This document shows positions 19,918 to 46,982 of a DNA stretch of 64,000 nt, one piece after another. Within the stretch, counting starts at the first letter, position 1. The number at the start of each line of letters is the position of its first letter. A model generated the notes under the pieces. The model searched no databases. It was not told the origin of the DNA and saw only the letters and a program-made list of their open reading frames with translations. This DNA comes from Lentzea aerocolonigenes (GTDB lineage: Bacteria > Actinomycetota > Actinomycetes > Mycobacteriales > Pseudonocardiaceae). Made by a program: the position numbers and the translations under genes. The stretch is taken from assembly GCF_000974445.1 (NCBI RefSeq), contig NZ_BBOJ01000003.1, positions 372,001 to 436,000 of the forward strand. Reading direction: 5' to 3'.

Positions 19918-19993
19918 ACGGTGGGACCGCCCCCGGAGCCACGCCGACAGTGGACGCCAGAACGTTCCAGGCGACACGGACGGGGTGAAAGAC

Positions 19994-20989: not shown

Positions 20990-21019
20990 TGGCACCAAGG
21001 CCTTCCGGGCGTGAGTTCC

Positions 21020-21033
21020 GGGACGAAGGTCCT
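21020..21033 (+). promoter_or_regulatory. DosR-like box upstream of the flavohaemoglobin gene
   Basis: GGGACGAAGGTCCT is nearly palindromic (GGGAC, four bases, GTCCT) and lies 90 bases upstream of the GTG at 21123. It has the half-site layout of DosR/DevR boxes. Confidence 0.45.
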
Positions 21034-21122
21034 GCCGCGAAGGCGACGTTCCGACCTGCGTTCGCCCGCACCTGATCACGCAAGCTCGAAGTCGCCCGTT
21101 CCCCACTTCCGAGGAGACCTCT

Positions 21123-29565: not shown

Positions 29566-29658
29566 GATCGGCAAGCTAGCCAGCCGCGCGTCCGGCGACC
29601 ATTGGCCAGAACGCCAACTTCCACCGGATTCTCGCCAGCGCCGCGATCCCCGGACGCG

Positions 29659-32345: not shown

Positions 32346-32346
32346 G

Positions 32347-33150
32347 TCACATTCCCATTCCGCCGTCGACCGGAAGCCCCGCTCCGGTGATGAACTTCGA
32401 CGCGTCGGAAGCCAGGAACACCACGGCGTCGGCCATGTCGTCGACCTGCCCGAGCCGTCCGAGCGGGGTCAGCTCGACGACCGCGCCCGCGGCCGCCTCC
32501 GGCGAGGGGAACAGGCCCAGCTCCGCGCAGTCCACCGCGAGCTGGTTGCCCATCGCCGTCGGCGTGAGGCCGGGGTAGATGCAGTTGACCCGCACGCCGT
32601 AGCCGAGCTTGCCGGACTCCGCGGCGGCCACCCTGGTCAGACGGTCGATCGCGGACTTCGTCGCCGAGTAGACGCTGATGCCGGGGAAGGCGATGGTGGC
32701 GGCGACGGACGCGACGCTGATGATCGCACCGCCGTTGCCCGCGGAGCCGCCAGGACACATGGCGCGCAGGCCGTGCTTCATGCCGAGGGCCGTGCCCAGC
32801 ACGTTGACGTCGAGCATCTTGCGCACGTCGGCCGGGTCGAGCTCGGTGATCAGGCTGGTGATCTCGATGCCCGCGTTGTTCACGAGGATGTCGAGTCCGC
32901 CGATCACGTCGACCGTGGTGCCGACCGCCGAGGCCCAGCTCTCGTCGTCGGTCACGTCCAACGGCACGAACTCCGCGGTCGCGCCCGCGTCGCGCAACGC
33001 CTGAGCGGTGTGCTTGCCCTCCTCCTCCAGGACGTCGCCGATCACGACGGCCGCGCCGGCCGCTGCCAGCGCTTCCGCCATCCCGGCGCCGAGTCCGCGG
33101 GCACCGCCCGTGACCAGTGCTTTTCGCCCGCTCAGCTGATAACTCGTCAT
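32347..33150 (-). CDS. Short-chain dehydrogenase/reductase (SDR)
   Basis: This classical SDR of 267 residues has the cofactor motif TGGARGLGAG, NNAG, catalytic Ser in SVAS and YxxxK as YSATK. The acidic residue in IGDVLEEE at the end of the second strand points to NAD(H). It should oxidise an alcohol to a ketone or the reverse. ATG at 33150 has GGAGG at 33157-33161 on the complement. It is the first gene of the operon, and the palindrome upstream is shared with the TetR gene. Confidence 0.9.
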   Translation of the reverse strand: MTSYQLSGRKALVTGGARGLGAGMAEALAAAGAAVVIGDVLEEEGKHTAQALRDAGATAEFVPLDVTDDESWASAVGTTVDVIGGLDILVNNAGIEITSLITELDPADVRKMLDVNVLGTALGMKHGLRAMCPGGSAGNGGAIISVASVAATIAFPGISVYSATKSAIDRLTRVAAAESGKLGYGVRVNCIYPGLTPTAMGNQLAVDCAELGLFPSPEAAAGAVVELTPLGRLGQVDDMADAVVFLASDASKFITGAGLPVDGGMGM

Positions 33151-33190
33151 CAAGGCCTCCTCGGTGAGCTGGCTCACACCCTAAACGCGT

Positions 33191-33228
33191 TTGGACAGTC
33201 GTCAAGCTTTTCCTTGACAACTGTCCAA
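33191..33228. promoter_or_regulatory. TetR-type operator in the divergent SDR/TetR promoter
   Basis: TTGGACAGTCGTCAAG (33191-33206) and CTTGACAACTGTCCAA (33213-33228) are complementary at 15 of 16 positions around six bases. A third TTTGGAC follows at 33234-33240. TTGACA within the right arm could be a -35 box for the TetR gene. The adjacent TetR protein is the obvious binder. Confidence 0.75.
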
Positions 33229-33281
33229 GATTCTTTGGACGACTGCCCGACGAATCGGCGCGCAGAGGTTAGGATCCGGAC

Positions 33282-33911
33282 GTGACACAAGTCGCCGACA
33301 GCAAGCAGGACCGGATCGCTCGCCGGCAGGTGGACAAGTTCGAGGCCAGGCGGACCGAGCTCGCCGTGGCCACGCTGCACACGCTCGCCGAGCTGGGCTA
33401 CGCCCGCACGAGCCTGCGCGAGATCGCGCAGAACTCCGAGTTCTCGCACGGCGTCCTGCACTACTACTTCGCCGACAAGCGCGATCTGATCACCGAGGCG
33501 GTCAGGCAGTACGAGGCGGTCTGCGTGACGCGGTACGACGAGGTGGTCGCCCGCGCGACGAGTCCCGGACAGCTGCGCGACGAGTTCGTGGCGATGTTCT
33601 TCGACACCCTCAGCGAGGACGCGACGCTGCACCGGCTCTGGTACGACCTGCGCAACCAGAGCCTGTTCGACTCCTCGTTCCGCGCGGACGTGCTGGAGAT
33701 CGACAGCCACCGGGAAGCCATGGTGTGGAGGGTGATCAGCCGGTACGCCGAGCTGCGCGACACCGAGCCCGCGACCTCACCGGCCACCACCTACGTGACG
33801 CTCGACGGGATCTTCCAGCGGGCGCTGCTGCACCACCTCACCGACAGGCCCGAGACCGTCGCGGAGATGCGCGGCGAGCTGCCCGGCGTCATCGACCTGC
33901 TCGTGCGCTGA
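33282..33911 (+). CDS. TetR-family transcriptional regulator
   Basis: This 209-residue regulator has an N-terminal TetR HTH (YARTSLREIAQNSEFSHGVLHYYFADKRDLI) and a helical ligand-binding domain. It should repress the divergent SDR/reductase/CoA-ligase operon through the long palindrome between them until a pathway substrate or its CoA ester binds. GTG at 33282 is the chosen start. Its 3' end overlaps the convergent DAHP synthase gene by 23 bases. Confidence 0.9.
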   Translation: MTQVADSKQDRIARRQVDKFEARRTELAVATLHTLAELGYARTSLREIAQNSEFSHGVLHYYFADKRDLITEAVRQYEAVCVTRYDEVVARATSPGQLRDEFVAMFFDTLSEDATLHRLWYDLRNQSLFDSSFRADVLEIDSHREAMVWRVISRYAELRDTEPATSPATTYVTLDGIFQRALLHHLTDRPETVAEMRGELPGVIDLLVR

Positions 33912-35061
33912 CCTCGTCGGCCACGAGCAGCGCCTGTTCGTTGTTGAGTCGCGGGTCGCACAGCGAGGTGTAGCGGCGGGCGAGCGCCGTCTCGTCCGGC
34001 ACGCGTGAACCGCCGACGCACTCGGTCACGTCCTCCCCCGCGAGTTCGAGGTGCAGACCTCCCGGCCACTCGCCGAGTTCGCCGACGGTCTCGTGGAACG
34101 CCGCCGCCTCGCCGGCGACGTCGTCCAGATACCGGGTCTTGACGCCGGTGCCGGTGATCCTCGTGTTGGCGTGCATGGGATCGCACATCCACACGACCGG
34201 ATGACCGGCTTCGCGGACCGCTCGCACCAACGGCGGCAGCAGGGTCCGGGCGCGCGGTCCGAGGCGGCAGATCAACGTCAGCCTGCCGGGTTCGCGTTCC
34301 GGGTCGAGCTTCGCGCACAGTGCGACGACGTCCTCCGGCAGGGCGTTCGGGCCGATCTTGCACCCGACGGGGTTGTCGATGCCGGAGAGGAAAGCGACGT
34401 GCCCGCCGCCGGGGTCGCGGGTGCGCTCGCCGATCCACGGGAAGTGCGTGGACGCCAGGTACGAGCTGCCGGTGCGCGGATCCGTGCGGACCAGGGCCTC
34501 CTCGTAGTCCAGCAGCAAGGCCTCGTGGCTGACCCACATGCCGTGCAGCTCCCTCATCACCGCACGGGCCGTGTGGTAGGCGGTGACCATGCGCCGGGCG
34601 TCCGGAACCCGCAGTGCCGCAACGGGATGCGGGCTGTTCACCGCGAGCCCGCGGAAGGTCGGCACCACCTGGCCGTCGACGATCTCCGTCGGTTCCGAGC
34701 GCGGTTTCGCGAACTGCCCCGCCAGCCGTCCGATCGTGAGCACCGGGACGTCCAGCGCGCGGCTGATCCGCTCCGCCAGCGCGCCCAGGATCCTGTCCTT
34801 TGCCAGCGCGCCCCGGCGTGCGGCGACACCGAACGGTTCGGCGCAGTCGCCTCCCTGCACCACGTACGCCCTGCTTCCGGCCACCTCGGCGAGCGCGTTG
34901 CGAACCGCGCGGACGTCCTCGGGCGTGGTGAGCGGCGGCGCGCTCGCCAGCTGCAACCGGGCGCGGGCGAGCTCGCACGAGTCGGGCCAGTCCGGCTGGT
35001 GTGCCGCGGGTTTGTCGCGCCAGACCGCCGGGTCCCACGACGTCCGGGTGGCCGCGGTCAC
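33889..35061 (-). CDS. Class II DAHP synthase (secondary-metabolism type)
   Basis: This enzyme joins phosphoenolpyruvate and erythrose 4-phosphate in the first step to chorismate. At 390 residues it is the short class II form (PhzC-like), lacking the N-terminal extension of housekeeping mycobacterial-type enzymes. Seen motifs are VQGGDCAEPF, GMWVSHEALLLDYEEALVR, NPVGCKIGP and VVWMCDPMHANT. GTG at 35061 overlaps the stop of the lyase gene. A dedicated copy beside an aminodeoxychorismate synthase gene suggests boosted chorismate supply for the cluster. Confidence 0.9.
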   Translation of the reverse strand: MTAATRTSWDPAVWRDKPAAHQPDWPDSCELARARLQLASAPPLTTPEDVRAVRNALAEVAGSRAYVVQGGDCAEPFGVAARRGALAKDRILGALAERISRALDVPVLTIGRLAGQFAKPRSEPTEIVDGQVVPTFRGLAVNSPHPVAALRVPDARRMVTAYHTARAVMRELHGMWVSHEALLLDYEEALVRTDPRTGSSYLASTHFPWIGERTRDPGGGHVAFLSGIDNPVGCKIGPNALPEDVVALCAKLDPEREPGRLTLICRLGPRARTLLPPLVRAVREAGHPVVWMCDPMHANTRITGTGVKTRYLDDVAGEAAAFHETVGELGEWPGGLHLELAGEDVTECVGGSRVPDETALARRYTSLCDPRLNNEQALLVADEVSARAGR

Positions 35062-36389
35062 CGGGCGTCCAGCACGCGCTGCACGAGGTCGGCGGCCGCA
35101 CCGAGGTAGTCCGCGGGGTCGCACAGGCCTTCCAGCGCCGCCGGTGGTGTTCCGCCGCCGCGGGCTGCGGCGGCGATCGTGCGCATCGCCTCGGCCTTTC
35201 CCAGCTGTGGCGTCAGATGCGCGGACAGCCGTTCGGCCACGATCGTCCAGCCCGTGATCTCCAGGTTGGTCCGCATCCGTTCGGGGTGGACGCGCAGACC
35301 GGTGACCAGTTCCGCCGCCGTGTGCGCAGCACCTCCCGCCAGCCGCAGGCACTCGCGCAACGGCTGCCATTCCGCGTGCCAGGTCCCGGCGGGCCGCTCG
35401 TCCTCGGCGAGCAGGCAGTGGGCGAGGGTCGACGCGAGACCGGGTGTCTGGAGCGCCGCGGACCGGATCAGCGTGGCGAGGCTGGGATTCTGCTTCTGCG
35501 GCATCGCGGACGACACGCCCTTGCCGTCCGCGGTGGACTCGCTGAGCTCGGCGATCTCGGTGCGGCACAACGACTGCACGTCGACGGCGATCTTGCCGAG
35601 CGCGCCGGTGACCAGCGTGCACCACGCGGCGGTGTCGACGATCGGCGTCCGCAGCACGTGCCACGGCACCACGGGCTCGGCCAGCCCCAGCTCGTCGGCA
35701 TAGGCGGTGATGAGGTTCGCGGTGTAGTCCGCGGGCAGCCGGTCGAAGTGCGGCCGGGCGTGCTCCAGGTAGGCCGCCATGGTCCCGGCGGCGCCACCGA
35801 TCTGCACGGGCAGTCCACTGTGGACCAAATCCCGCGCCCGGACGTCCGCCTGCCGCACCAGGTGCAGCCAGCCCGCCGCCTTCAGCCCGAACGTCGTGGG
35901 CACGGCGTGCTGGGTGAGCGTGCGGCCGGCCATGACGGTGTCCCGGTGCCGTTCCGCCAGGTCCTCCAGCGCGCTGACCACCGCGGCGAGGTCCCGCCGG
36001 ACGTGGGTCACGACCTGCGCGACGACCAGGCAGCAGGCGGTGTCGAGGACGTCCTGGCTGGTCGAGCCGCGGTGGACGTACTCGGCGGCGGCGGGGTCGA
36101 TCGCGGCGACGCGCGCGGTGAGGTCCTCGACCACCGCGACGACCGGGTTCGCCGCTCCCCGCGACCGCGCGGCGATCGAGGCGATGTCGAGGCAGGCGTC
36201 GCGGGCGACCATGGTGATGACCTCGGCAGCCGGGGCGGGAACGGTGCCGACCCTGGCCTGGGCGCGGGCGAGTCCGGCCTCGGCCTCGCACATGGCCCGC
36301 AGCCAGGCGTCGTCGGAGGTCATCGCCTCGACCCGGGTGGTGGCGCGGACCGGGGAGAGGAGTCCGGTGTCGCGCAGGGTGTGAATCAC
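35058..36389 (-). CDS. CreD-like nitrosuccinate lyase candidate (fumarase/aspartase superfamily)
   Basis: This 443-residue lyase starts TGLLSPVRATTRVEAMTSDDAW, like 3-carboxymuconate cycloisomerases and CreD. The signature loop SSAMPQKQNP holds the catalytic Ser, and HRGSTSQDVLDTA is intact. CreD releases nitrite from nitrosuccinate, leaving fumarate. The assignment rests on the neighbour at 36418, a CreE-like FAD enzyme that would form nitrosuccinate from aspartate. Adenylosuccinate lyase or cycloisomerase activity is the alternative. GTG at 36389 has AGGAGGAC upstream, and its stop overlaps the DAHP synthase start. Confidence 0.8.
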   Translation of the reverse strand: MIHTLRDTGLLSPVRATTRVEAMTSDDAWLRAMCEAEAGLARAQARVGTVPAPAAEVITMVARDACLDIASIAARSRGAANPVVAVVEDLTARVAAIDPAAAEYVHRGSTSQDVLDTACCLVVAQVVTHVRRDLAAVVSALEDLAERHRDTVMAGRTLTQHAVPTTFGLKAAGWLHLVRQADVRARDLVHSGLPVQIGGAAGTMAAYLEHARPHFDRLPADYTANLITAYADELGLAEPVVPWHVLRTPIVDTAAWCTLVTGALGKIAVDVQSLCRTEIAELSESTADGKGVSSAMPQKQNPSLATLIRSAALQTPGLASTLAHCLLAEDERPAGTWHAEWQPLRECLRLAGGAAHTAAELVTGLRVHPERMRTNLEITGWTIVAERLSAHLTPQLGKAEAMRTIAAAARGGGTPPAALEGLCDPADYLGAAADLVQRVLDAR

Positions 36390-36417
36390 GTCGTCCTCCT
36401 GGGGTGGTGGCGCAAGG

Positions 36418-38349
36418 TCACATCGCCCTCCTCACGTCCTCACGCACCCGCCCAGGCACCCGCCGCACGCCCAGCGCCGCCCGCGCGATCGCGTCCGCAT
36501 CGCTGACGGTCGCCGAAGCCGAGCAAGGCCGAATCCCGACGGCGGTCGCCCAGTGCACCGACTCGGTCGGCACCCCCAACGCGTACAGCCCGGCGTTCGG
36601 CACGCCGTCCGCGGCGATCACCCGAGCAGGCCTCGGCGTCACGTCCAGCCCGCCCGTCTCCAGCACGCCGCCTTCCCCGTCGGGCACCCGGTGCGGCCTG
36701 CACCGTCCGGCGGCGAGCAGGTTCCGGAGCAGTTCGTCGGACGTGGTGCGGACATCCGGTGTGGGCATGCGCGCGTCGATCACCGCGGAGACCGGCAGCG
36801 GCTCGGCCAGCAGGTCGGCGACCGCGAGGAACGTGCCCTCGCCCGGCTCGACTCGAGTGCCGGGGCCGAGGACGTCCAGCACGCCGGCGGAGATCAGGGC
36901 CGCCATCTCCTCGATCCGCCGGGCGGGCGGGCCGATCGACAGGAACGCGTTGAGCGGGCTGAACCAGCGCTCCAGGTCGTCGCGGTGGGAGCGGCCGTGC
37001 AGGCCGCCGTGGTCGACGACCGCGCGGATCTCGTTGCGCAGGTCGCGCAGGACGTCGAGGGCCGCCTTGACCGGTCCGCGCACGTTGCCCTGCGCCGCCC
37101 TGGCCACGTCCTCGCGCAGGTGGCGCAGCAGCCAGGGGCGGAACTCGTCCAGCGAGCCGAAGACGCGGTCCAGCGGCTGCTCGATCCGCGTCCAGTCCCA
37201 GCGCGACTCCCCCGGAACGGAGTACTCGTCCAGCAGTGCCGCCTCCTCACCCGAAGGACACGCCCGGTACCGGGCGGAGAACCGAGCCACACCAAGGGGT
37301 TCCAGGCGTGACGCCAGCAAGGTCGCGTAGTAGACCGTCTCGACCTCCTTCGCGATCAACGGCCACAGGTGCGCGCGGAAGTCGACCGGCGCGGACCGCA
37401 ACGCGCGCACCACGTCCTCGGTCAGCACAGCCGCCTGATGACGGCCGTGGGCGCCCTTCTGGTTCTCACCGCGAGCGTGCAGCGGCACGCCTCGCCGCGA
37501 CCCCGCGTACAGCTGGGGCTCGTCGCCGGAAGGGACGTACGCGAGAACGCCGTCGCGGCGCTCGAACCGGCCGCCGCGGCCCGTGGTCAGGACGGCGAGG
37601 TGGTCGAAGAAGTTCAGGCCCAGGCCGAGCAACAACGTGGGCTCGCCCGGTTCGATCAGGGTGAGGTCGGCGTCGGCGGGGTTGCCCGGCGGCACGTACC
37701 GCAGGCCGTGGGTCGCGGCGAACTCGCCGAACGAACGCTCCCGCGCTCCCGGCCGGGCCGGCAGATGGCCCTGTGCCAGGACAACCGCGTCGAGGTCGCC
37801 GAGCACCTCTCCGTCGGCCAGCCGGACCTCACGCCCGGTCACGTCCACCGCACGCTGCCGGTGGTGCACGATCCGCACGCCCGCGGGCGCGTTCCGAACC
37901 ACCTCCCCCAACGCCCACACGAGGTAATGCCCGTAGAACGCCCGCGTGGGGTAGGAATCGGGTCCCAGACGCCTGGCCTCGGCCCGGATCGTGGCGTCCC
38001 AGTCGTGGCTCGCCGTCGACGCGACGGAGCGCGACCACTCGTACAGCGAGGGGCCGCGCCGGACCGGACCTTCCATCGGCACGCTGTCATCAGGGAAAAC
38101 CGTGACCTGCGAACACACCGTGTTCATCAGGAAACCGGCGGGTTGCCGCGTCTTCCACACAGATCCACAACCGTGCTCCGCGGGATCCACGACGTGCACC
38201 ACGAGCTCATCGCCCAGAACGAGCGGCGCCCAATTGGAACACGTTCTTTCCAGCACCGAGAGCCCTCTGGGCCCCATTCCGATGACCGCAATGCTGTATT
38301 TGGTGAGAATGGATTTACCAACTTCCGGAACAAGACCCCGAACGGTCAC
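36418..38349 (-). CDS. CreE-like FAD-dependent enzyme (nitrosuccinate synthase candidate)
   Basis: This large FAD/NAD(P)-binding protein of about 643 residues has its first Rossmann motif in SIAVIGMGPRGLSVLER. It then carries HGCGSVWKTRQPAGFLMNT and VTVFPDD, and a second dinucleotide region (TLLLGLGLNFFDHLAVL). This is the PF13454-like layout that I recall for CreE, which oxidises aspartate to nitrosuccinate. The start is taken as GTG at 38349; no strong ribosome site is visible and the frame stays open upstream. The lyase gene follows after 28 bases, so the two likely form the nitrite-forming pair. Confidence 0.75.
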   Translation of the reverse strand: MTVRGLVPEVGKSILTKYSIAVIGMGPRGLSVLERTCSNWAPLVLGDELVVHVVDPAEHGCGSVWKTRQPAGFLMNTVCSQVTVFPDDSVPMEGPVRRGPSLYEWSRSVASTASHDWDATIRAEARRLGPDSYPTRAFYGHYLVWALGEVVRNAPAGVRIVHHRQRAVDVTGREVRLADGEVLGDLDAVVLAQGHLPARPGARERSFGEFAATHGLRYVPPGNPADADLTLIEPGEPTLLLGLGLNFFDHLAVLTTGRGGRFERRDGVLAYVPSGDEPQLYAGSRRGVPLHARGENQKGAHGRHQAAVLTEDVVRALRSAPVDFRAHLWPLIAKEVETVYYATLLASRLEPLGVARFSARYRACPSGEEAALLDEYSVPGESRWDWTRIEQPLDRVFGSLDEFRPWLLRHLREDVARAAQGNVRGPVKAALDVLRDLRNEIRAVVDHGGLHGRSHRDDLERWFSPLNAFLSIGPPARRIEEMAALISAGVLDVLGPGTRVEPGEGTFLAVADLLAEPLPVSAVIDARMPTPDVRTTSDELLRNLLAAGRCRPHRVPDGEGGVLETGGLDVTPRPARVIAADGVPNAGLYALGVPTESVHWATAVGIRPCSASATVSDADAIARAALGVRRVPGRVREDVRRAM

Positions 38350-38468
38350 CTGAACGGCACCAGGGGCTACTACTGAGCGTGTGCGCCAGCACGCGGGCTG
38401 CCGATACTCCGCCCGGCGATGTGTGATCCACGTGAGGTTAGCGCTCACAGAATCAGTTGAACCCGCCT

Positions 38469-38498
38469 GCGCACACGCCCGTATGAATCCATGTGCGC
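38469..38498. promoter_or_regulatory. Inverted repeat in the divergent cluster promoter
   Basis: GCGCACA (38469-38475) and TGTGCGC (38492-38498) are perfect complements across 16 bases. A second small repeat, GTGAG and CTCAC, lies at 38432-38448. Both sit between the divergent CreE-like and ABM-domain genes, in the only long gap (205 bp) of the cluster. They are candidate operators. Confidence 0.35.
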
Positions 38499-38554
38499 GC
38501 TTTTCGGTGACACCGAACGGAGCAGCCGTCGCGCAAGTGGAGGCAGTCGATCCA

Positions 38555-39181
38555 ATGCCCGGGGAAAACGAAGGTGTCGTCATCAGCGCACACCGGGTGC
38601 GACCGGGCAGGATGGCGAGTTTCACCACGTCGGTAAAGGGACTGCTCAGCGCGGCTGCCAGATCACAGGGCTATCTCGACGGCAGAATGGAGAAAGCATC
38701 GGGTGATTCGGGTGACTGGCTGGTCATCTGCTGGTTCGACAGCGCGGAGAGCGCGGGCGAGTGGGCCCGGTCGCGATCTCACGCCACCTGGCGCGAGTAC
38801 GTGGGACGCTTCGCCACCCGAGTTGAACCGCCGGCGCAGGCACCGCCGGCCGCCGGGCCGCCGAAGCCCCCACCTCGCTGGAAGACCGCACTGGTCACGT
38901 TGGTCGCTGTCTTCCCCGCGGTCCTGCTGGTCAACGTCACCGTCATCCCGCGCGTCACCGGCCTGCCGCTCCTGGCGCGCACGCTGGTCCTCTGCGTGTG
39001 CGTGACGGGGCTGATGACCTGGGTGCTCATGCCGCAGGTGATGAAGGTGCTCGGCCCGTGGCTGCGCAGAGGCACCGCGGCGGCGCCACCCGCTCCCCGG
39101 CCCGAAGTCGATCCCGCTCCAGCGAAGGCATCCACCTCGATCCCGTCCACCACGACCTGGCGCGGCCTCCAGCCACCCTGA
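38555..39181 (+). CDS. ABM-domain membrane protein
   Basis: This 208-residue protein has an N-terminal antibiotic-biosynthesis-monooxygenase-like domain (about 5-90, with SAHRVRPGRMASFTTSVK and DWLVICWFDSAESAGEW). A Pro-rich linker, two membrane helices (ALVTLVAVFPAVLLVNVTV and TLVLCVCVTGLMTWVLM) and a polar tail follow. Its role is unknown; a membrane-bound cofactor-free monooxygenase or heme-binding protein is possible. ATG at 38555 has GGAGG at 38539-38543. The frame extends upstream without support. It is 33 bases before the aminodeoxychorismate synthase gene. Confidence 0.75.
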   Translation: MPGENEGVVISAHRVRPGRMASFTTSVKGLLSAAARSQGYLDGRMEKASGDSGDWLVICWFDSAESAGEWARSRSHATWREYVGRFATRVEPPAQAPPAAGPPKPPPRWKTALVTLVAVFPAVLLVNVTVIPRVTGLPLLARTLVLCVCVTGLMTWVLMPQVMKVLGPWLRRGTAAAPPAPRPEVDPAPAKASTSIPSTTTWRGLQPP

Positions 39182-39214
39182 CCCGTCGCCGCCGACCCCC
39201 TCGGAGCGTATTCA

Positions 39215-41401
39215 GTGCGGACCCTCCTGATCGACAACCACGACTCGTACACCTACAACCTGTTCCACCTCGTCGCGAGCGTGAACGGGGAAGACCCCCT
39301 GGTGCTGAGCAACGACGACCCGGCGCTCGGCAGGGTGTCGTTCGACGACGTGGACAACGTGGTGATCTCCCCCGGCCCCGGACGGCCGGGCAGGAGCCGG
39401 GACCTCGCCGGGTCGATCAGGTTCCTGGACCAGGACGTGCTGCCGGTGCTCGGCGTCTGCCTGGGTCATCAGGGGCTCGGGTTCCTGGCGGGCGCACGGA
39501 TCGCGCTGGCTCCGCAGGCACGCCACGGCCACCCGACCGCCGTCACGCACAACGGCCGTGACCTGTTCGAGGGCATCCCGCAGGGGTTCACGGCGGTGCG
39601 CTACCACTCGTTGCACGTGCCCGAACCCCTGCCGCCGGACCTGGAGGCCACGGCCTGGGCGGAGGACGGCGTGCTGATGGGGCTGCGGCACCGGTCGCGG
39701 CCGCACTGGGGAGTGCAGTTCCACCCCGAGTCGATCCTCACCGAGCACGGAACGCGGCTGCTCGCGAACTTCCGCGCACTGTCCGAAAAGGCCAGACCGT
39801 CGATCACCGTGCGCGCTCCCCGCGAGCCTGCGGACGTCGAAGTTCGCGTCCAGCCCACAAGTCACCGGTTGCACACCGCCGTGTACCGCGGGGTCGTCGA
39901 TCCCGAGCAGGTCTTCACGGAACTGCACTCGGCGTCGGAACGCGCGTTCTGGCTGGACGGCGCCGGTGCGGGCGAACGCGGGGCGCGGTTCTCCTACCTC
40001 GGCGACGACACCGGCCCGCTCGCCGAGTACTGCAGCTACGACGTGCGCGCGGGCGTGGTGACGGTGGAACGCGCGGGCCGACCGGCGATGAGGCTGCGCG
40101 AGGACGTCTTCACCTACCTGCGGCGCGGTCTGGCCGATCGAGCGCACTCCCAGCCGGACCTCCCGTTCGACTTCACCTGCGGCTGGGTCGGTTACTTCGG
40201 CTACGAGCTCAAGGCGGCGCTCGGCGGTCGTGCCGCCCACCGCAGCAGCACGCCGGACGCGGCCTGGCTGTTCGCCGACCGCGTGATCGTCATCGACCAC
40301 CAGGAGCAGACGGCACACCTGCTGTGCCTGGCCGAGGACACGCCGTGCGCCCGTGACGAGGCCGCGGGCTGGCTCGACTCGACGCTCGCCTTCCTCTCCT
40401 CGCTGTCGGCGCACGAGGCACCGCACGTCCGGTGGTGGCCGGAGGAGGAAGACGCCGTGGAGATCACCGAGCGCTGGCTGCTGCGCGAGGCGGAGGACTA
40501 CCGCCTGGACGTCGTCGCCTGCCAGGAACAACTGCGCTCCGGCGAGAGCTACGAGATCTGCCTGACCACCGCCGTGGAGCTGCCCGCGACGTGCGAGTCC
40601 GCGGACTACTACCGCGTGCTGCGCCGGGTGAATCCCGCGCCGTACTCCGCGTACCTGCGCTTCGGCGAGGTGGACGTGGCCAGCTCCTCGCCCGAGCGGT
40701 TCCTGCGCGTCGGCGCCGACGGCGTGGTCCAGGCCGAGCCGATCAAGGGCACCGCCGCCCGCGGTCAGACCCCGGAACAGGACGCCGCACTGCGCGACGC
40801 GCTCGCCGAGGACCCGAAGACCCGCGCCGAGAACCTGATGATCGTCGACCTCCTGCGCAACGACCTCGGCCGCGTGTGCCAGGTCGGCACGGTGCACGTG
40901 CCGGAACTGATGGGGACGCGCACCTACCGGACCGTGCACCAGCTCGTGTCGACGGTGCGCGGCGACCTCAAGCCGGGCCTCGACGCGCTGGACGTGGTGC
41001 GGGCGTGCTTCCCCGGCGGGTCGATGACCGGAGCGCCCAAGGAACGCACGATGGAGATCATCGACGACCTGGAGCCGAGCGCCAGGGGCGTGTACTCCGG
41101 CGCGCTGGGTTACTTGAGCTGCAACGGATCCGCGGACCTGAGCATCGTCATCCGGACCGCGGTCTTCTCGTCCGGACGGGTGCGCATCGGCGCGGGCGGG
41201 GCGGTCGTGCTCGACTCCGATCCGGACGGCGAGTACCAGGAGATGCTGCTGAAGCTGGCCGCGCCGATGCGGGCGTACTGGAGCTCGGGCGCGCACCGTC
41301 CGGCCGCGGTGCTGTCCGCCGAGCCGCGTCTGCACCGGCGGGGCAGGCACCGCAGGCGTCGCCGCGCCACCACCTTCGGCGCAGAGGTGGAGGCGGGCTG
41401 A
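39215..41401 (+). CDS. pabAB: Fused aminodeoxychorismate synthase (PabA-PabB)
   Basis: This 728-residue bifunctional enzyme makes 4-amino-4-deoxychorismate from chorismate and glutamine. The glutaminase part (about 1-195) has Cys82 in GVCLGHQG and His170-Pro-Glu in FHPES. The synthase part (about 215-690) ends with the chorismate-binding core. The loop PIKGT with Lys511 marks aminodeoxychorismate synthases, whereas anthranilate synthases read PIAGT. Fused forms are typical of antibiotic pathways such as chloramphenicol and candicidin. GTG at 39215 follows GGAG. Its stop overlaps a small 40-codon frame. Confidence 0.92.
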   Translation: MRTLLIDNHDSYTYNLFHLVASVNGEDPLVLSNDDPALGRVSFDDVDNVVISPGPGRPGRSRDLAGSIRFLDQDVLPVLGVCLGHQGLGFLAGARIALAPQARHGHPTAVTHNGRDLFEGIPQGFTAVRYHSLHVPEPLPPDLEATAWAEDGVLMGLRHRSRPHWGVQFHPESILTEHGTRLLANFRALSEKARPSITVRAPREPADVEVRVQPTSHRLHTAVYRGVVDPEQVFTELHSASERAFWLDGAGAGERGARFSYLGDDTGPLAEYCSYDVRAGVVTVERAGRPAMRLREDVFTYLRRGLADRAHSQPDLPFDFTCGWVGYFGYELKAALGGRAAHRSSTPDAAWLFADRVIVIDHQEQTAHLLCLAEDTPCARDEAAGWLDSTLAFLSSLSAHEAPHVRWWPEEEDAVEITERWLLREAEDYRLDVVACQEQLRSGESYEICLTTAVELPATCESADYYRVLRRVNPAPYSAYLRFGEVDVASSSPERFLRVGADGVVQAEPIKGTAARGQTPEQDAALRDALAEDPKTRAENLMIVDLLRNDLGRVCQVGTVHVPELMGTRTYRTVHQLVSTVRGDLKPGLDALDVVRACFPGGSMTGAPKERTMEIIDDLEPSARGVYSGALGYLSCNGSADLSIVIRTAVFSSGRVRIGAGGAVVLDSDPDGEYQEMLLKLAAPMRAYWSSGAHRPAAVLSAEPRLHRRGRHRRRRRATTFGAEVEAG

Positions 41402-41523
41402 TGAACCGGACCCGCACAACGGTGCTCGCCACGACGGCCCAGGGGCAGCTGATGAACCGGACCTGCAACACGGGCCGCCACCACCCGGCCCCGTTCAGCC
41501 CGGCGGCGGAGGCGTCCAGATGA
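41401..41523 (+). CDS. Small coupled frame (40 aa) between pabAB and ligase
   Basis: ATG at 41401 overlaps the pabAB stop (TGATG), and the stop overlaps the ligase ATG (ATGA at 41520), so the frame fills the gap exactly. The 15 bases CTGATGAACCGGACC occur at 41398-41412 and again at 41449-41463, 51 bases (17 codons) apart. This suggests a junction duplication rather than a conserved peptide. No motif is seen. It may serve only to pass ribosomes to the next gene. Confidence 0.4.
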   Translation: MNRTRTTVLATTAQGQLMNRTCNTGRHHPAPFSPAAEASR

Positions 41524-42983
41524 CCCGAACGTCCAACGCCTCCGCCGCCCTCTCCCGGCACGCCGACCGCGCCGGCTGGTCCTCCCGTCCCGCCTACCTG
41601 GTGGGCGACGAGACCTGGACCCACGGCCAGATCCACGACCTGGCCGCCCGAGCCGCCGGCGTCCTGCACGACCGCGGCATCGCCCGCGGCGACCACGTGC
41701 TGCTCGCTGCCCCGGACGGCGTCGCGTGGGTCGTCGCCTTCCTCGCGATCACCCGTCTCGGCGCGGTGGCCGTGCTGGTGAACCCGGAGCTCACCGAGGC
41801 AGATCACCAGCTCCTCCAGACCGACTGCGGCGCCAGGGCCTGCATCACCGACGAAGCCCTCGAACAACGCTTCGAAGGCACGTGGATCGACGTCGACCAC
41901 CTGCTCGACCAGGCCTGGACGACCTCGGCCGGTCCCGTCGCCGACGTGACCCCGGACAGTCCCCTCTACGTGCAGTACACGTCCGGCACGACCGGCCAGC
42001 CGAAGGGCGTGGTCCACGCGCACAAGGACCTCGCCCTGTACGGCGCGTCGGTCGGGCGTGACGTCCTGCGCATCGGCATCGGCGACATCGCGCTGTCGGT
42101 GTCGAAGATGTTCTGGGCCTACGGTTTCGGCAACGCGCTGGCGTTCCCGCTGCACTCCGGTTCGTCCGCAGTGCTCACCCCGCACCGGCCTGGCGCGGAG
42201 GAGATCGCCGGGCTCGTGGCCAGGCATCGGGTGAACCTGCTGTACTCCGTGCCCTCCTCCTACGCGGCACTGGTGTCCGCCGACGGCCGCGACGCGCTGA
42301 GGTCCCTGCGGGCCGCCATCTCGGCAGGCGAACCGCTGCCGGAGTCCCTCGGCGCACGCCTGCGTGACGAGCTGGGCGTCGAGACGCTCGAGCAGATCGG
42401 TTCCACCGAGGCCGGACACGCCTTCTGCGCCAACAGGATCGGCGACAACGTCCCCGGCACGCTCGGCCGTCCCGTGCCCGGCTGGGAGGTGCAGGTGCGA
42501 GACGAACAGGGCTTCCCGGCCGAGGACGGCGAGCTGTGGGTGCGCGGTCCGACGCTGTTCTCCCGCTACCTCAACCAGCCGGAGCTCACCAGAACCACCC
42601 TCGTCGACGGCTGGCTGACGACCCACGACCGCGTCCGTCACAACGACGACGGCACGCTCACCCACCTCGGCCGCACCGACGACATGGAGATGGTCGGCGG
42701 GATCTCGTTGTCCCCCTTGGAGATCGAACGCGTGCTGGCCGCACATCCGCTGGTGCGCGAGGCCGCCGTGGCCGCGGTGCTCGACCACCACGACGCGTCC
42801 CGTCTGCGGGCGTTCGTGGTGCCCGCGCACACCACCCCGGGGCTGGAGGACGAGCTCATCACCTGGACCCGGTCCCACCTCCCCTCGTTCAAGGTTCCGC
42901 GCACCGTTCGGCTCGTCCAGAAACTCCCGAGGACCGCCACAGGCAAGCTGCGCCGGCACGTCGTGCGCACCGGATCCTGGTAA
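41520..42983 (+). CDS. Benzoate-CoA-ligase-like acyl-adenylating enzyme
   Basis: This 487-residue class I adenylate-forming enzyme is close in look to benzoate-CoA ligases. It shows YTSGTTGQPKGVVHAHKD, SKMFWAYGFGNALAFPL (a benzoate-ligase hallmark), SAGEPLPESLG, GSTEAGHAF and PRTATGKLRRH with the catalytic Lys. p-Aminobenzoate or a derivative is the likely acid because the same cluster encodes its synthesis. It could load CoA or a carrier; no carrier protein is in the window. ATG at 41520 is coupled to the small frame upstream. Confidence 0.88.
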   Translation: MTRTSNASAALSRHADRAGWSSRPAYLVGDETWTHGQIHDLAARAAGVLHDRGIARGDHVLLAAPDGVAWVVAFLAITRLGAVAVLVNPELTEADHQLLQTDCGARACITDEALEQRFEGTWIDVDHLLDQAWTTSAGPVADVTPDSPLYVQYTSGTTGQPKGVVHAHKDLALYGASVGRDVLRIGIGDIALSVSKMFWAYGFGNALAFPLHSGSSAVLTPHRPGAEEIAGLVARHRVNLLYSVPSSYAALVSADGRDALRSLRAAISAGEPLPESLGARLRDELGVETLEQIGSTEAGHAFCANRIGDNVPGTLGRPVPGWEVQVRDEQGFPAEDGELWVRGPTLFSRYLNQPELTRTTLVDGWLTTHDRVRHNDDGTLTHLGRTDDMEMVGGISLSPLEIERVLAAHPLVREAAVAAVLDHHDASRLRAFVVPAHTTPGLEDELITWTRSHLPSFKVPRTVRLVQKLPRTATGKLRRHVVRTGSW

Positions 42984-43001
42984 CCCAGCAAGGAGCTTCC
43001 C

Positions 43002-44576
43002 GTGCAGCAAAAGCTTTTCTCCGGCAGCGGTTTCTACATCGGACAGATGTTCCGCGAGGCCGCGTCGCGTCACGGCGCCGTGCCCGTCGTCCTGGACCGT
43101 CCCCTGGACGTGGCTCCCGAGTCCGGGCTGCAGCACACCTACCGCTCCCTCGCCGACCTGGTGGACCGGCTGGCCGACCAGCTGTGGACCGCCGGGGTCC
43201 GGCCCGCGAGCCACGTCGCGATCCACAAGCGGGACAACGCGGACATCGCACTGCTCGGCTGTGCCGCGTCACGCATCGGCGCGATCCCCGTCCTGCTGTC
43301 CCCCGGCCTGGACGCCGCCGCGGCGAGCATCCTGCTCAGCAGGCTCGACCGGCCGTTCCTGGTCACGGACGAGGCGACGCTGTCCGGCCTGGCCGCGCAC
43401 ACCGACATCGCCGCACTGACCGGCAAACGCATCGTCGTCAGCGGTGTCTTCCCCGGTGCCGTCACTCTGGACGGCCTGGAGGTGACCGGGCGCGCCAGGC
43501 TCGTGCGGCTGCACCCCGACGAGCCCGCCATGATCACGCACAGCTCCGGCACCACCGACGTGCCCAAGCTCGCCGTGCACTGCGCCCGCGCGCTGTGGAA
43601 CAGGCTGGTGCCGCAGAAAGCGATGGCGCTGCCCGTGCGCGGGGAGACCGCGGCGTTCTGCATGTCGTTCGTCCACTCGCGCTTCTACCACGCGCTCGGC
43701 ACGTTCCTGTCCGGCGGAAGCCGCCTGCTGCTCCTGGTGGACCACGACCCCGCCTCCGTCGGCCCGTTGCTGGCGCGGTGGCAGCCCGGCGTCGTCGAGA
43801 CGCACCCCAACACGTTCGTGCTGTGGGAAGACCTCGCGGACGCGCCAGGCGCACCGCTGCGCAACGTCCGTTGCTTCGGCAGCACGTTCGACGCCATCCA
43901 CCCGCGCACCGTGCAACGGCTGCTCGGCGCGTCACGACGACGTGGCAAGTACCTCATGCAGCTCTACGGACAGAGCGAGACCGGGCCAGTCGCCGTGCGC
44001 CTGTTCACCGAACGCGGCGCGGCCCGCAACGGCCGGCTCGTGGGCGTCGGCATCCCCGGTTTCACGAAGGTCAGGATCACCGACGACTCCGGCGCTCCGG
44101 TGCCGCGCGGAACGGTCGGGCACATCGAGGCGCGCACCCGCGGACGGATCATCACCTACCAGGGCGCCCAGGACCGTTACGACGCGCAGCTCAACGGCAG
44201 CTGGTGGCGCATGGGCGACATGGGCACCCGCAGCTGGTGGGGCGGCCTGAACCTGATCGACCGCGAGATCGACCGGATCGACGACGTGGACAGCAACCTC
44301 CGCATCGAGGACGTGCTGATGTCCCGCCTCGACGAACTGCGCGAGGTCGTCGTGGTCCCCGGCGCGGACGGGGTGGCGGTGCCCGTGGTCTGCACCCGCA
44401 CCGGCGCACCGCTGGCCCCGGCGCGCTGGCGAAGCGCGACGGCCGACCTGCCTGTTTTGGCCACGCCGCAGCAGTGGGCGTTCGACGACCTGCCGAGGAC
44501 GTCGACGTGGAAGATCAAGCGGGTGGCGCTCGCCCAGCTGATCGCCGCCGGGGACAGCGCGGTGGCTCATGGCTGA
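43002..44576 (+). CDS. Divergent AMP-forming ligase, candidate diazotase
   Basis: This 524-residue adenylate-forming enzyme has THSSGTTDVPKLAVH as its ATP loop, HPNTFVLWEDL, LYGQSETGP, the WRMGDMGTRSWWGGLNLIDRE hinge and Lys in STWKIKRV near the end. It is distant from ordinary CoA ligases. In cremeomycin-like pathways a CoA-ligase relative (CreM) uses ATP and nitrite to diazotise an aromatic amine. The presence of a nitrite-forming pair makes this a candidate for that step. A second CoA or carrier-loading ligase is the alternative. GTG at 43002 has AAGGAG at 42990-42995. Confidence 0.8.
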   Translation: MQQKLFSGSGFYIGQMFREAASRHGAVPVVLDRPLDVAPESGLQHTYRSLADLVDRLADQLWTAGVRPASHVAIHKRDNADIALLGCAASRIGAIPVLLSPGLDAAAASILLSRLDRPFLVTDEATLSGLAAHTDIAALTGKRIVVSGVFPGAVTLDGLEVTGRARLVRLHPDEPAMITHSSGTTDVPKLAVHCARALWNRLVPQKAMALPVRGETAAFCMSFVHSRFYHALGTFLSGGSRLLLLVDHDPASVGPLLARWQPGVVETHPNTFVLWEDLADAPGAPLRNVRCFGSTFDAIHPRTVQRLLGASRRRGKYLMQLYGQSETGPVAVRLFTERGAARNGRLVGVGIPGFTKVRITDDSGAPVPRGTVGHIEARTRGRIITYQGAQDRYDAQLNGSWWRMGDMGTRSWWGGLNLIDREIDRIDDVDSNLRIEDVLMSRLDELREVVVVPGADGVAVPVVCTRTGAPLAPARWRSATADLPVLATPQQWAFDDLPRTSTWKIKRVALAQLIAAGDSAVAHG

Positions 44577-45768
44577 CGAGGCCCCGGTGATCGTGGTGGG
44601 CGCCGGACCGGTCGGGCTCTTCGCCGCACTGGCCCTGCGCGCTCACCACGTCCCCGTCGTCCTGCTCGAAGCCGACCCCGCCGAACGACACCGCACCGGC
44701 AGCCGCGCCCTCTACGTCCACGGGAAGTCGTTGGCACTGCTGGAATCCACCAGCGAAGGACTCGGAGCGGAGCTGGCGGCCCAGGGCGTGCTCTGGAACG
44801 TGCGCCGCACGTTGTTCCGCGGGAGAGAGGTGTACGCGCGGGAGTTCCCGCCGCACGACCCCGCCCGCGGCCTGCCCCCGTTCACGAGCCTGCGCCAGAG
44901 CGAGACCGAGCGGATACTGCTGAACGCCTGCGCACGAGCGGGTGTGGACGTGAGGTGGAACCACCCCGTGACCGAGGTCGTCACGCATCCCGGTGGCGTC
45001 ACGGTCGCCACGGCCGACGGCGCGACCTGGTCGGGCAGCCACGTCGTCGGAGCCGACGGCGCCAGGTCGACCGTGCGCAAGTGCACCGGGACCGCGCTGG
45101 ACGGCTCGGCCGCGGACGGCTTCCACGTCGTGGTCGACGTCGCCGACGAGCCGGACGTGGCTCCGAGCCTGGAACGGATCATGCACTACGAGCACCCGGC
45201 CGCGGACGGCCGCGGCGTGCTCGTAGTGCCCTACGCCAAGGGTTTCCAGGTCGACGTGCAGAGCCGCGCCGGCGACTCGGCCGACGTCTTCGCCTCACCC
45301 GAGGAAGTGCGGCGGTGGCTGCCCGGGCTGATCGGGCCGACCGCTCCCGAACGCATCACCGCGATCTCGGTCTACCGGTTCCTGCAGCTGATCGCCGACG
45401 ACTTCACCGATCCTCACCACCGGATCCTCCTCGCGGGCGAAGCCGCCCACCTGTTCCCGCCGTTCGGCGCGCGCGGCATGAACAGCGGCTTCGTCGACGC
45501 ACACGCCGCGGCGGAGGCGATCGCGACCGGCCGCATGTTCCCGACGGCCAACGCCGAGACCGTCACGGCGTTCGCCACGTCGAGGCGGGAGGCGGCGGAG
45601 GTCAACAGCGCCGCCGCCGGCGCGGCCCTGCGGCACCTGAGGCCTCCCAGCACGGCGGCCCGGTTGCGGCGCAGGGCGGCGGCCTCGCTGGCGCCGGTGG
45701 TGCCACGACTCGGCGAGTGGCTGGAACACGCCCCCTACGGACCGCGCGCGGCACTGGCGAGGCACTGA
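44569..45768 (+). CDS. FAD-dependent aromatic monooxygenase
   Basis: This class A flavin monooxygenase has 399 residues. The FAD fold is VIVVGAGPVGLFAALALR, the middle motif is [13 protein letters not shown] and the second FAD motif is LAGEAAHLFPPFGARGMNSG. It starts inside the ligase gene (ATG at 44569, eight-base overlap). It would hydroxylate an aromatic ring, plausibly p-aminobenzoate or an activated form; decarboxylating hydroxylation or N-oxidation cannot be excluded. No NAD(P)H-binding subdomain detail was resolved. Its stop is coupled to the next start (TGATG). Confidence 0.87.
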   Translation: MADEAPVIVVGAGPVGLFAALALRAHHVPVVLLEADPAERHRTGSRALYVHGKSLALLESTSEGLGAELAAQGVLWNVRRTLFRGREVYAREFPPHDPARGLPPFTSLRQSETERILLNACARAGVDVRWNHPVTEVVTHPGGVTVATADGATWSGSHVVGADGARSTVRKCTGTALDGSAADGFHVVVDVADEPDVAPSLERIMHYEHPAADGRGVLVVPYAKGFQVDVQSRAGDSADVFASPEEVRRWLPGLIGPTAPERITAISVYRFLQLIADDFTDPHHRILLAGEAAHLFPPFGARGMNSGFVDAHAAAEAIATGRMFPTANAETVTAFATSRREAAEVNSAAAGAALRHLRPPSTAARLRRRAAASLAPVVPRLGEWLEHAPYGPRAALARH

Positions 45769-46511
45769 TGACGACCGAGGACACTCCCCTGCTGGTGGCC
45801 GACTCCTGGCTCGTGCTGGACGGATCGGTGCGGTCGCTGGACCGGCACGTCCGCAGGTTCACCCGATCGTGCCTGGAGATCGGTGCCGTCACGCCCGAGC
45901 AGCTCGACGGGTTCTGGCGCGAGACGATCTCCGTCCTGCCGCGCACCGGCGCGTGGTTCCCGCGGGTGGAGCTCGCGGGCGACCCGGCGACGTTGCGGCT
46001 GCGGATCCGCCCGGCACCCCCGCGCGGCGAGCACGTGCGCGTGTGGGTGCCGGACGTGCCCGACCACCGGCGCAGTCCCGCTCGCAAAGGACCGGATCTC
46101 CAGTCGCTCACCGCGCTGCGGGCCGAGGCGGAGAAGCACGGCGCCCAGGAGGCGTTGCTGCGCACGGCGGACGGTGTCGTCGTCGAAGCCGCGAGCTCGT
46201 CGGTGCTGTGGTGGGAGGACGACGTCCTGTGCTCACCACCCGAGGAGATTCCGGCGCTGCCGGGAACGACCGCCGGACTCGTGCTGGACCTGGCTGCCTC
46301 GCTCGAAGTCCGGACGGCGAGGCGCGCACGTCACGTCGACGAGCTGGCCGGCCGGGAGGTGTGGCTGCTCAACGCGCTGCACGGCATCCGACTGGTGAGC
46401 GAGCTGATCGGCTGCGACGCGGCTCCCGGCAGTGGCACGCGCTTCACGTCCTGGCGGGAGCGGGTCGAACGGCTGCGCACACCGCTGGACCCGCCCCCGA
46501 GCGGGCTATGA
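45768..46511 (+). CDS. pabC: Class IV aminotransferase-fold enzyme, ADC lyase candidate (PabC-like)
   Basis: This 247-residue PLP enzyme of the branched-chain aminotransferase/ADC lyase fold should split aminodeoxychorismate into p-aminobenzoate and pyruvate. The Lys that binds PLP lies in SPARKGPDLQSL, and the phosphate-binding Glu region reads VVVEAASSSVLWW. The C-terminal HVDELAGREVWLLNALHG fits the family. With the fused synthase at 39215 it completes PABA formation. ATG at 45768 overlaps the monooxygenase stop. It is the last plus-strand gene of the cluster and converges on an AhpD-like gene. Confidence 0.83.
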   Translation: MTTEDTPLLVADSWLVLDGSVRSLDRHVRRFTRSCLEIGAVTPEQLDGFWRETISVLPRTGAWFPRVELAGDPATLRLRIRPAPPRGEHVRVWVPDVPDHRRSPARKGPDLQSLTALRAEAEKHGAQEALLRTADGVVVEAASSSVLWWEDDVLCSPPEEIPALPGTTAGLVLDLAASLEVRTARRARHVDELAGREVWLLNALHGIRLVSELIGCDAAPGSGTRFTSWRERVERLRTPLDPPPSGL

Positions 46512-46982
46512 CTGGGAGTTCGGGGGCACCATGCGGGTGCTGATCGCGATGCGGTTGTAGGCGTTGATGACGGTGCAGACCCAGATCAGCGCGGCCACGC
46601 CCTCGTCGCCGAACTCGGTGGCGGCGGCCCGGTACACCTCGTCCGGCACCCGGCCGTCGTGCACCAGGGTGATCGCCTCGGCCAGCGCGAGCGCGGACTT
46701 CTCCCGCGCGTCGAACAGCGTGGACGTCTTCCAGGCGAACAGCGCGTCGAGCCGTTGCGGCGCCTCGCCACCGGTCCTCGCGTCACGGGCGTGGAGGTCT
46801 ATGCAGAACTCGCACCCGTTGATCTGGGAGACGCGCAGGCGCAGCAGTTCGAGCAGGGGGTCGGGCAGTCCGGCGCGAGCCGCGTTGCCCGCGGCCGCGA
46901 GGTGCAGCGCCCGCATCCCTGCGGACACGTCCGGGGTGACCGACTTCAGGTTGACCCGCGGCTCACTCGTGATGGTCGACAT
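46506..46982 (-). CDS. AhpD/carboxymuconolactone decarboxylase-family protein
   Basis: This 158-residue all-helical protein carries the redox pair CEFC followed by His (GCEFCIDLHARDAR). This is the AhpD-like thiol-peroxidase signature shared by the carboxymuconolactone decarboxylase family. It would act as an alkylhydroperoxidase or in disulfide exchange; no partner is adjacent. ATG at 46982 is used. Six bases overlap the convergent PabC-like gene. Confidence 0.9.
   Translation of the reverse strand: MSTITSEPRVNLKSVTPDVSAGMRALHLAAAGNAARAGLPDPLLELLRLRVSQINGCEFCIDLHARDARTGGEAPQRLDALFAWKTSTLFDAREKSALALAEAITLVHDGRVPDEVYRAAATEFGDEGVAALIWVCTVINAYNRIAISTRMVPPNSQS

What the first reader, a model, noticed from the sequence alone, without database searches (positions are those of the whole stretch)
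33889..46511. Compact cluster pairing nitrite formation from aspartate with p-aminobenzoate synthesis
Seen: class II DAHP synthase, a fumarase-superfamily lyase, a ~640-residue FAD/NAD(P) enzyme, fused aminodeoxychorismate synthase (PIKGT), a class IV aminotransferase-fold enzyme, two AMP-forming ligases and an aromatic monooxygenase, mostly with overlapping ends. Known: CreE and CreD (cremeomycin) turn aspartate into nitrosuccinate and then nitrite, and a CoA-ligase relative uses nitrite to diazotise an aromatic amine. Inference: this locus makes PABA, makes nitrite, and joins them into a diazo, azo, triazene or hydrazine-type product. The combination with a dedicated PABA branch is one I do not know as described.
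Basis: partly seen in the sequence, partly recalled or inferred. Interest (0 to 1): 0.9.

Follow-up and report, generated by a model that had tools for sequence, protein, structure and literature searches.

The report
Nitrite plus PABA diazo-type gene cluster
A soil actinomycete (genus Lentzea) carries a ten-gene cluster that very probably makes nitrite from aspartate and p-aminobenzoate from chorismate, and then uses an uncharacterised relative of known nitrite-using enzymes to form a nitrogen-nitrogen bond on the ring; this pairing was not found described in the papers searched.

Summary
At 33889-46982 there is a compact cluster: class II DAHP synthase, CreD, CreE, an ABM-domain membrane protein, fused ADC synthase (PIKGT), a benzoate-CoA-ligase-like enzyme (LigA), a divergent adenylating enzyme (LigB), a group-A flavin monooxygenase, a class-IV aminotransferase-fold protein and an AhpD-like protein. 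The host genus is Lentzea.

CreE and CreD are true members of the aspartate-nitrosuccinate (nitrite) pathway. CreE falls in the clade of the solved aspartate N-hydroxylase with its arginine cluster intact. CreD has the E/H/D/H/R fingerprint and essential S/K/N, but KQNP replaces KRNP.

It belongs to an unnamed family that is sister to Tri17/AvaA6/CmaA6 (100/98) and sits within 25 kb of CreE in 22 of 59 members, against about 0.2% expected.

The core ADCS-LigA-LigB-FMO-AT4-AhpD recurs in several genera, often without linked creDE. So creDE is an add-on, and not every host genome has it.

Most likely function: nitrite- and ATP-dependent diazotisation of a hydroxylated PABA derivative. Product, substrate order and LigB activity are inferred. 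This is a new variant of a known kind.

The parts
33889..35061 (-). short class II DAHP synthase (390 aa); supplies shikimate flux
   Evidence: PF01474 440 bits; start placed; orthologs 60-77% next to creD in Lentzea, and in the Kibdelosporangium cluster
35058..36389 (-). CreD, nitrosuccinate lyase (443 aa)
   Evidence: NF052556 620 bits, cut-off 650; 59% identity to CreD 5xny, fingerprint E49/H118/D125/H253/R341 and S302/K308/N310 conserved, R309 to Q
36418..38343 (-). CreE, FAD/NADPH L-aspartate N-hydroxylase (641 aa)
   Evidence: 8cp2 612 bits, 56% identity; 10 of 12 residues discussed in PMC10404684 conserved; inside the CreE clade
38555..39181 (+). ABM-domain protein with C-terminal membrane helices (open frame from 38381); role unknown
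   Evidence: PF03992 E=5.5e-4, below cut-off; recurs upstream of ADCS in Lentzea, Saccharothrix, Kibdelosporangium, Streptomyces, Actinoplanes
39215..41401 (+). fused aminodeoxychorismate synthase (PabA-PabB, 728 aa)
   Evidence: TIGR00553 over cut-off; GATase and chorismate-binding domains; PIKGT at 509
41520..42983 (+). LigA, benzoate-CoA-ligase-type adenylating enzyme (487 aa)
   Evidence: TIGR02262 350 bits (cut-off 375); best solved relative benzoate-CoA ligase 2v7b 278 bits
43002..44576 (+). LigB, candidate nitrite-activating N-N-bond-forming adenylating enzyme (524 aa)
   Evidence: family profile best matches in PDB 9xb8 (143 bits) and Tri17 (134); clade with Tri17/CmaA6/AvaA6 100/98; co-localises with CreE; all ANL motifs intact
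44569..45768 (+). group-A FAD monooxygenase (399 aa), candidate ring hydroxylase
   Evidence: PF01494 145 bits; nearest solved: rifampicin monooxygenase and PnpA
45768..46511 (+). class IV aminotransferase-fold protein AT4 (247 aa), candidate aminodeoxychorismate lyase
   Evidence: PF01063 92 bits; ADC lyase models weak; model pLDDT 94 matches class IV transaminases and an ADC lyase
46506..46982 (-). AhpD/carboxymuconolactone-decarboxylase-fold protein (158 aa), CxxC...H present
   Evidence: PF02627 62 bits, TIGR00778; conserved beside the cassette in nearly all loci

Best explanation
This is a specialised-metabolite cluster in which two precursors are made locally and joined. CreE oxidises L-aspartate to nitrosuccinate and CreD releases nitrite from it (family function, strongly supported). 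The DAHP synthase, the fused ADC synthase and probably the AT4 protein (or the housekeeping lyase) make p-aminobenzoate (supported, except for AT4). The flavin monooxygenase hydroxylates the aromatic ring, most likely giving an aminophenol such as 4-amino-3-hydroxybenzoate or, by oxidative decarboxylation, 4-aminophenol (inferred). LigB activates nitrite with ATP and transfers the nitrosyl to the aromatic amine, giving a diazonium or quinone diazide that is kept or coupled further (inferred from phylogeny and genomic association). LigA activates the carboxylate as an adenylate or CoA thioester for esterification, amidation or chain building (inferred). The roles of the ABM and AhpD proteins are unknown. 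Where creDE is not linked, nitrite would come from another ANS locus or from general metabolism.
For: CreE and CreD identity by structure-matched residues, profiles and tree. PIKGT in all ADC synthases of the cassette examined. Window ADCS is additional to a second full-length one in the genome. LigB family profile ranks Tri17 and 9xb8 above every CoA ligase in the PDB. LigB plus Tri17/CmaA6/AvaA6/9xb8 form one clade against about 20 other adenylating enzymes of the same genome (100/98). 22 of 59 LigB-family members have CreE within 25 kb against about 0.17% expected, and 2 of 42 for more remote homologues; genome-level co-occurrence odds ratio 11, p about 1e-12. LigB keeps HSSGTT, YGQSE, GD and the A10 lysine. 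The linked creE of Lentzea and Kibdelosporangium form one clade, consistent with stable coupling. Ring hydroxylation fits published cases in which a hydroxyl group on the ring stabilises the diazo group or is needed by the diazotase (PMC11705231).
Against: No activity or product is shown. The core cassette occurs without linked creDE in at least 15 loci; creE-like genes above 1e-40 are absent from G202, G220 (87% complete) and G398, and only remote ones (35-36% identity) are present in G242 and G373. LigB is far from characterised diazotases (58 bits to the AvaA6 model), and its predicted fold matches the amide synthetase McbA slightly better than CmaA6 by E-value (rank 1 against rank 12). AT4 matches ADC lyase models only weakly, and its catalytic lysine is replaced in three Streptomyces members. 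CreD has KQNP in place of the proposed KRNP signature.
Confidence: 0.6

Rival explanations
1. LigB is an amide-bond or ester-forming adenylating enzyme of McbA type that couples a PABA carboxylate to an amine. The PABA cassette makes an ordinary aminobenzoyl amide, and creDE feeds a different step or sits nearby by chance.
For: Foldseek ranks McbA first for the LigB model; single-sequence phmmer gives McbA 72 bits, level with 9xb8; many cassettes lack linked creDE.
Against: The family profile prefers 9xb8 and Tri17 (143 and 134 bits) to McbA (100 bits); in the tree McbA groups with the window's Lig3, not LigB; strong CreE co-localisation of the LigB family.
Confidence: 0.15
2. Diazotisation is cryptic, as in avenalumic and p-coumaric acid pathways: LigB diazotises the PABA-derived amine and the diazo group is then lost as N2, giving a deaminated hydroxybenzoate-type product.
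For: That logic is established for ava and cma (PMC10777205); the same genome holds an ava-type cluster.
Against: The conserved core gene set listed contains no AvaA7-like NADPH reductase; removing nitrogen from PABA would give benzoates available more cheaply from other routes (inference).
Confidence: 0.12
3. The nitrite or nitrosuccinate made by CreED is used elsewhere (C-nitrosation, nitration, 3-nitropropionate, or the second ANS-dependent cluster), and the PABA cassette is an independent pathway co-located in some lineages.
For: Many PABA cassettes have no linked creDE, and some genomes have none at all; the own genome has a second ANS cluster.
Against: creDE and the cassette share one compact arrangement in Lentzea and lie together in Kibdelosporangium; these CreE form one clade; LigB relatives outside the PABA cassette also sit beside CreE.
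Confidence: 0.13

Closest known systems
Cremeomycin cluster (creE/creD/creM)
   Same: Aspartate-to-nitrite pair plus an adenylating enzyme and an aminobenzoate-type acceptor; CreD 59% identical over the aligned region
   Different: Cremeomycin's acceptor is 3-amino-2-hydroxy-4-methoxybenzoate (PMC11705231); no PABA branch is described there; LigB is not an AvaA6-type enzyme
Penzonemycin (pzm) and tasikamide (aha) clusters
   Same: creDE plus a shikimate-derived arylamine; pzm also carries its own DAHP synthase (PMC9323291)
   Different: Arylamine is 3-hydroxyanthranilate (pzm) or alkyl 5-hydroxyanthranilate (aha), not PABA; diazotase is a CreM homologue (Pzm18, Aha11)
Avenalumic/p-coumaric acid clusters (ava, cma)
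   Same: Nitrite pathway plus ATP-dependent diazotase; one such cluster is in this same genome
   Different: 3,4-AHBA starter, type II PKS, AvaA6-type diazotase (LigB scores 58 bits against 975), and an AvaA7 reductase not seen in the conserved core here
Triacsin Tri17
   Same: Nearest identified solved relative of the LigB family (134 bits); nitrite-using N-N ligase (PMC11705231)
   Different: Acts in N-hydroxytriazene formation; sister, not member, of the LigB clade
Azoxymycin cluster
   Same: Aromatic amine ending in an N-N-bonded aryl product
   Different: N-N bond forms from nitroso/hydroxylamine made by the diiron enzyme AzoC, not from nitrite (PMC11705231)

Membership tests
L-aspartate N-hydroxylase (CreE/FzmM type) | Falls in the clade of the characterised enzyme 8cp2 | tested here: met
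   Tree of 34, SH-aLRT 100 for the ANS clade; 56% identity
L-aspartate N-hydroxylase (CreE/FzmM type) | Arg/Asn cluster binding aspartate (R13, N62, R266, R276, R409, R412, N413, R416, R577) | tested here: met
   All nine conserved; R593 conserved, R597 to G and V571 to A
Nitrosuccinate lyase (CreD) | Fingerprint E49/H118/D125/H253/R341 and S302/K308/N310 | tested here: met
Nitrosuccinate lyase (CreD) | SS-loop SSxMPxKRNP proposed for nitrite-using lyases | tested here: not met
   SSAMPQKQNP in all six cluster orthologs (R309 to Q only); other ANS CreDs keep KRNP
Nitrosuccinate lyase (CreD) | NCBIfam NF052556 equivalog cut-off 650 bits | tested here: not met
   620 bits; other CreE-linked Lentzea CreDs also score 605-640
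3-aminoavenalumate diazotase AvaA6 (NF058622) | Equivalog cut-off 975 bits | tested here: not met
   LigB 58 bits; own-genome AvaA6-type protein 1030 bits as positive control
Nitrite-activating ANL group (CreM/AvaA6/Tri17) | Phylogenetic placement with characterised members | tested here: inconclusive
   LigB family is the sister of that group (100/98), not inside it
Nitrite-activating ANL group (CreM/AvaA6/Tri17) | ATP- and nitrite-dependent diazotisation | not testable with these tools
   Needs enzyme assay
Aminodeoxychorismate synthase | PIKGT lysine, glutaminase domain, TIGR00553 cut-off 328 | tested here: met
   346 bits, PIKGT at 509, GVCLGHQ and HPES
Aminodeoxychorismate lyase (PabC) | Curated PabC model cut-off and PLP lysine | tested here: not met
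   47 bits against 273; Lys present in the window protein but Thr in three relatives
Benzoate-CoA ligase family (TIGR02262) | Curated cut-off 375 bits | tested here: not met
   350 bits; the nearest solved relatives are benzoate-CoA ligases
Class II DAHP synthase | PF01474 over gathering score | tested here: met
   440 bits; below the TIGR01358 cut-off (418 against 615), a short form of 390 aa

The most novel reading that the evidence does not exclude
LigB founds an uncharacterised family of nitrite-activating adenylating enzymes, sister to CreM/AvaA6/Tri17 and present in over 40 Pseudonocardiaceae genomes and in the Streptomyces violaceusniger group. One branch of it diazotises a p-aminobenzoate-derived amine, defining a widespread class of PABA-based diazo, azo or hydrazone natural products.
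Probability: 0.5. Interest if true: 0.72.

Novelty: new variant of a known kind. Interest (0 to 1): 0.55.

Why it matters
Enzymes that put a nitrogen-nitrogen bond on an aromatic amine are few and valued as catalysts. If LigB is one, it opens a separate branch of the family acting on an acceptor made from p-aminobenzoate, and gives a marker gene set (ADCS-LigA-LigB-FMO-AT4-AhpD) for mining reactive diazo or azo metabolites across actinomycetes. It also poses a direct test: some cassettes carry their own nitrite genes and some do not, so where does the second nitrogen come from?

Tried and rejected
Adenylosuccinate lyase or cycloisomerase as identity of the lyase: rejected by profile and structure scores and residue fingerprint. 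Anthranilate synthase as identity of the chorismate enzyme: rejected by PIKGT and TIGR00553. LigB as an AvaA6 equivalog: rejected. The upstream operon 28169-33911 (DUF6010, Lig3, DUF5938, SDR, TetR) and the SARP and AlkZ genes downstream as cluster members: rejected, not conserved with the cassette. A shared extra enzyme replacing creDE in loci without it: none found among the flanking genes checked. Promoter scan of the creE/abm divergent region: no sigma-70-like site. Structure comparison of LigB: not decisive, since all ANL enzymes match. Structure comparison of AT4: not decisive between transaminase and ADC lyase. Literature: nothing pairing PABA with the nitrite pathway was found in the open-access library; most subscription papers and MIBiG could not be searched.
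Full report
Setting. The window lies in a 10.7 Mb genome. So the host is a Lentzea.

The observation. Refined genes are: DAHP synthase 33889-35061 (-), CreD 35058-36389 (-), CreE 36418-38343 (-), ABM/membrane protein 38555-39181 (+), ADC synthase 39215-41401 (+), LigA 41520-42983 (+), LigB 43002-44576 (+), monooxygenase 44569-45768 (+), AT4 45768-46511 (+) and AhpD-like 46506-46982 (-). The two arms diverge from a 211 bp region.

Nitrite pair. CreD matches the solved CreD (5xny) at 442 bits, twice the next best. It keeps the fingerprint E49/H118/D125/H253/R341 and the essential S302/K308/N310 described in PMC13411527. One residue of the proposed loop signature differs: KQNP in place of KRNP. 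The change is shared by all six CreD orthologs of this cluster but not by CreDs of other nitrite clusters in the genus. CreE matches only one solved sequence, the L-aspartate N-hydroxylase 8cp2/8cp5 (612 bits; PMC10404684). All nine residues of its aspartate-binding and catalytic set are conserved. In a tree of 34 relatives it sits inside the aspartate N-hydroxylase clade, grouped with the CreE of other Lentzea and of Kibdelosporangium. Nitrite formation is therefore the expected family function; it was not measured.

PABA branch. The ADC synthase is over the curated PabB cut-off and carries PIKGT, as do all cassette copies examined. The genome has another full-length homologue at 51% identity, so this copy is extra. 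AT4 is weaker evidence. It has the class IV fold and its lysine is present in the window protein, but it matches ADC lyase models far below cut-off, and the lysine is lost in three Streptomyces relatives. A stronger class IV protein elsewhere in the genome could do the lyase step.

The two adenylating enzymes. LigA is closest to benzoate-CoA ligases. LigB is divergent. Against the curated 3-aminoavenalumate diazotase model it scores 58 bits, whereas the enzyme of a second nitrite cluster in the same genome scores 1030. A profile of 28 LigB relatives, however, ranks 9xb8 (143 bits) and the nitrite-using Tri17 (8tf7/9bq0, 134 bits) above every CoA ligase in the PDB; CmaA6 (8ztz) scores 105 (identities from PMC11705231). 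9xb8 is annotated only as FadD, but it is one of only four solved sequences matched by the AvaA6-type protein below 1e-25. In a tree with about 20 other adenylating enzymes of this genome, LigB relatives and Tri17/CmaA6/AvaA6/9xb8 form one supported clade (100/98), with LigB as sister to the characterised group. The predicted LigB structure is good (pLDDT 89), but fold comparison does not separate diazotases from amide synthetases.

Genomic association. In 392 genomes of the family, 22 of 59 LigB-family members (at least 390 bits) lie within 25 kb of a CreE; about 0.17% would by chance, and only 2 of 42 more remote homologues do (p about 1e-4). At genome level the odds ratio is 11. These counts are not independent across related genomes, but the pairing recurs in many genera. 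CreE-linked LigB relatives without ADC synthase also exist (L109, L110), so the link is not only through this cassette.

Cassette distribution. ADCS-LigA-LigB-FMO-AT4-AhpD recurs in Lentzea, Saccharothrix, Kibdelosporangium, Amycolatopsis, Actinokineospora, Actinoplanes and the Streptomyces violaceusniger group. creE is linked in the window, in four other Lentzea (in one, L. indica, split over two short contigs), in Kibdelosporangium banguiense, and in the genomes G241 and G140. It is unlinked but present elsewhere in most of the rest. It is absent from G202, G220 and G398, and represented only by remote homologues in G242 and G373. So creDE is an attached module rather than part of the invariant core.

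Mechanism. The most likely scheme is nitrite from aspartate; PABA from chorismate; ring hydroxylation by the monooxygenase (nearest solved relatives rifampicin monooxygenase and PnpA); ATP-dependent diazotisation of the amine by LigB; and carboxylate activation by LigA. Hydroxylation before diazotisation is inferred from published cases: Aha11 needs a para-hydroxyl, and spinamycin's diazonium is unstable for lack of an ortho-hydroxyl (PMC11705231). The order of steps and the final product are not determined.

Novelty. Known nitrite-dependent clusters found here use 3,4-AHBA, 3-hydroxyanthranilate, 5-hydroxyanthranilate or polyketide-extended arylamines (PMC10777205, PMC9323291, PMC11429834, PMC11705231). 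None of the open papers searched pairs the pathway with PABA. Earlier surveys that mined creD/creE/creM neighbourhoods (cited in PMC13061610) may have listed it without description. I rate it a new variant of a known kind.

Noticed in passing
G000:C34:192001-232000 (L053, L054): A second nitrite-pathway cluster in the same genome with a true AvaA6-type diazotase (1030 bits), so an avenalumate or p-coumarate-type cluster.
   Followed up: partly
29659-31218 (-): A third adenylating enzyme (Lig3) that groups with the amide-bond synthetase McbA in the tree (100/99); it lies in a separate operon with DUF6010, DUF5938, SDR and TetR genes.
   Followed up: partly
19856-22277 (+): A nitroreductase-like fragment followed by a flavohaemoglobin-like protein (globin, FAD and NAD domains), a possible NO-detoxifying enzyme 11-13 kb from the nitrite genes.
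   Followed up: no
3786-6086 (+): Histidine kinase with a NIT (nitrate and nitrite sensing) domain, 28 kb from the cluster.
   Followed up: no
52080-57492 (+): ATP-grasp amino acid ligase, DUF364, PLP-dependent enzyme and MFS transporter in a row: a likely separate small peptide-type cluster.
   Followed up: no
L118 (JOAA01000007.1): Record named Rhodococcus rhodnii NRRL B-16535 falls by genome in the same genus as Kibdelosporangium and is 12.4 Mb; probably mislabelled.
   Followed up: no
L124, L126, L135: AT4 homologues in three Streptomyces violaceusniger-group strains have Thr in place of the PLP lysine, yet the gene is kept.
   Followed up: no
L116 13952-15058: In Lentzea nigeriaca, which lacks linked creDE, a formyltransferase-domain gene sits directly beside the AhpD gene.
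   Followed up: no
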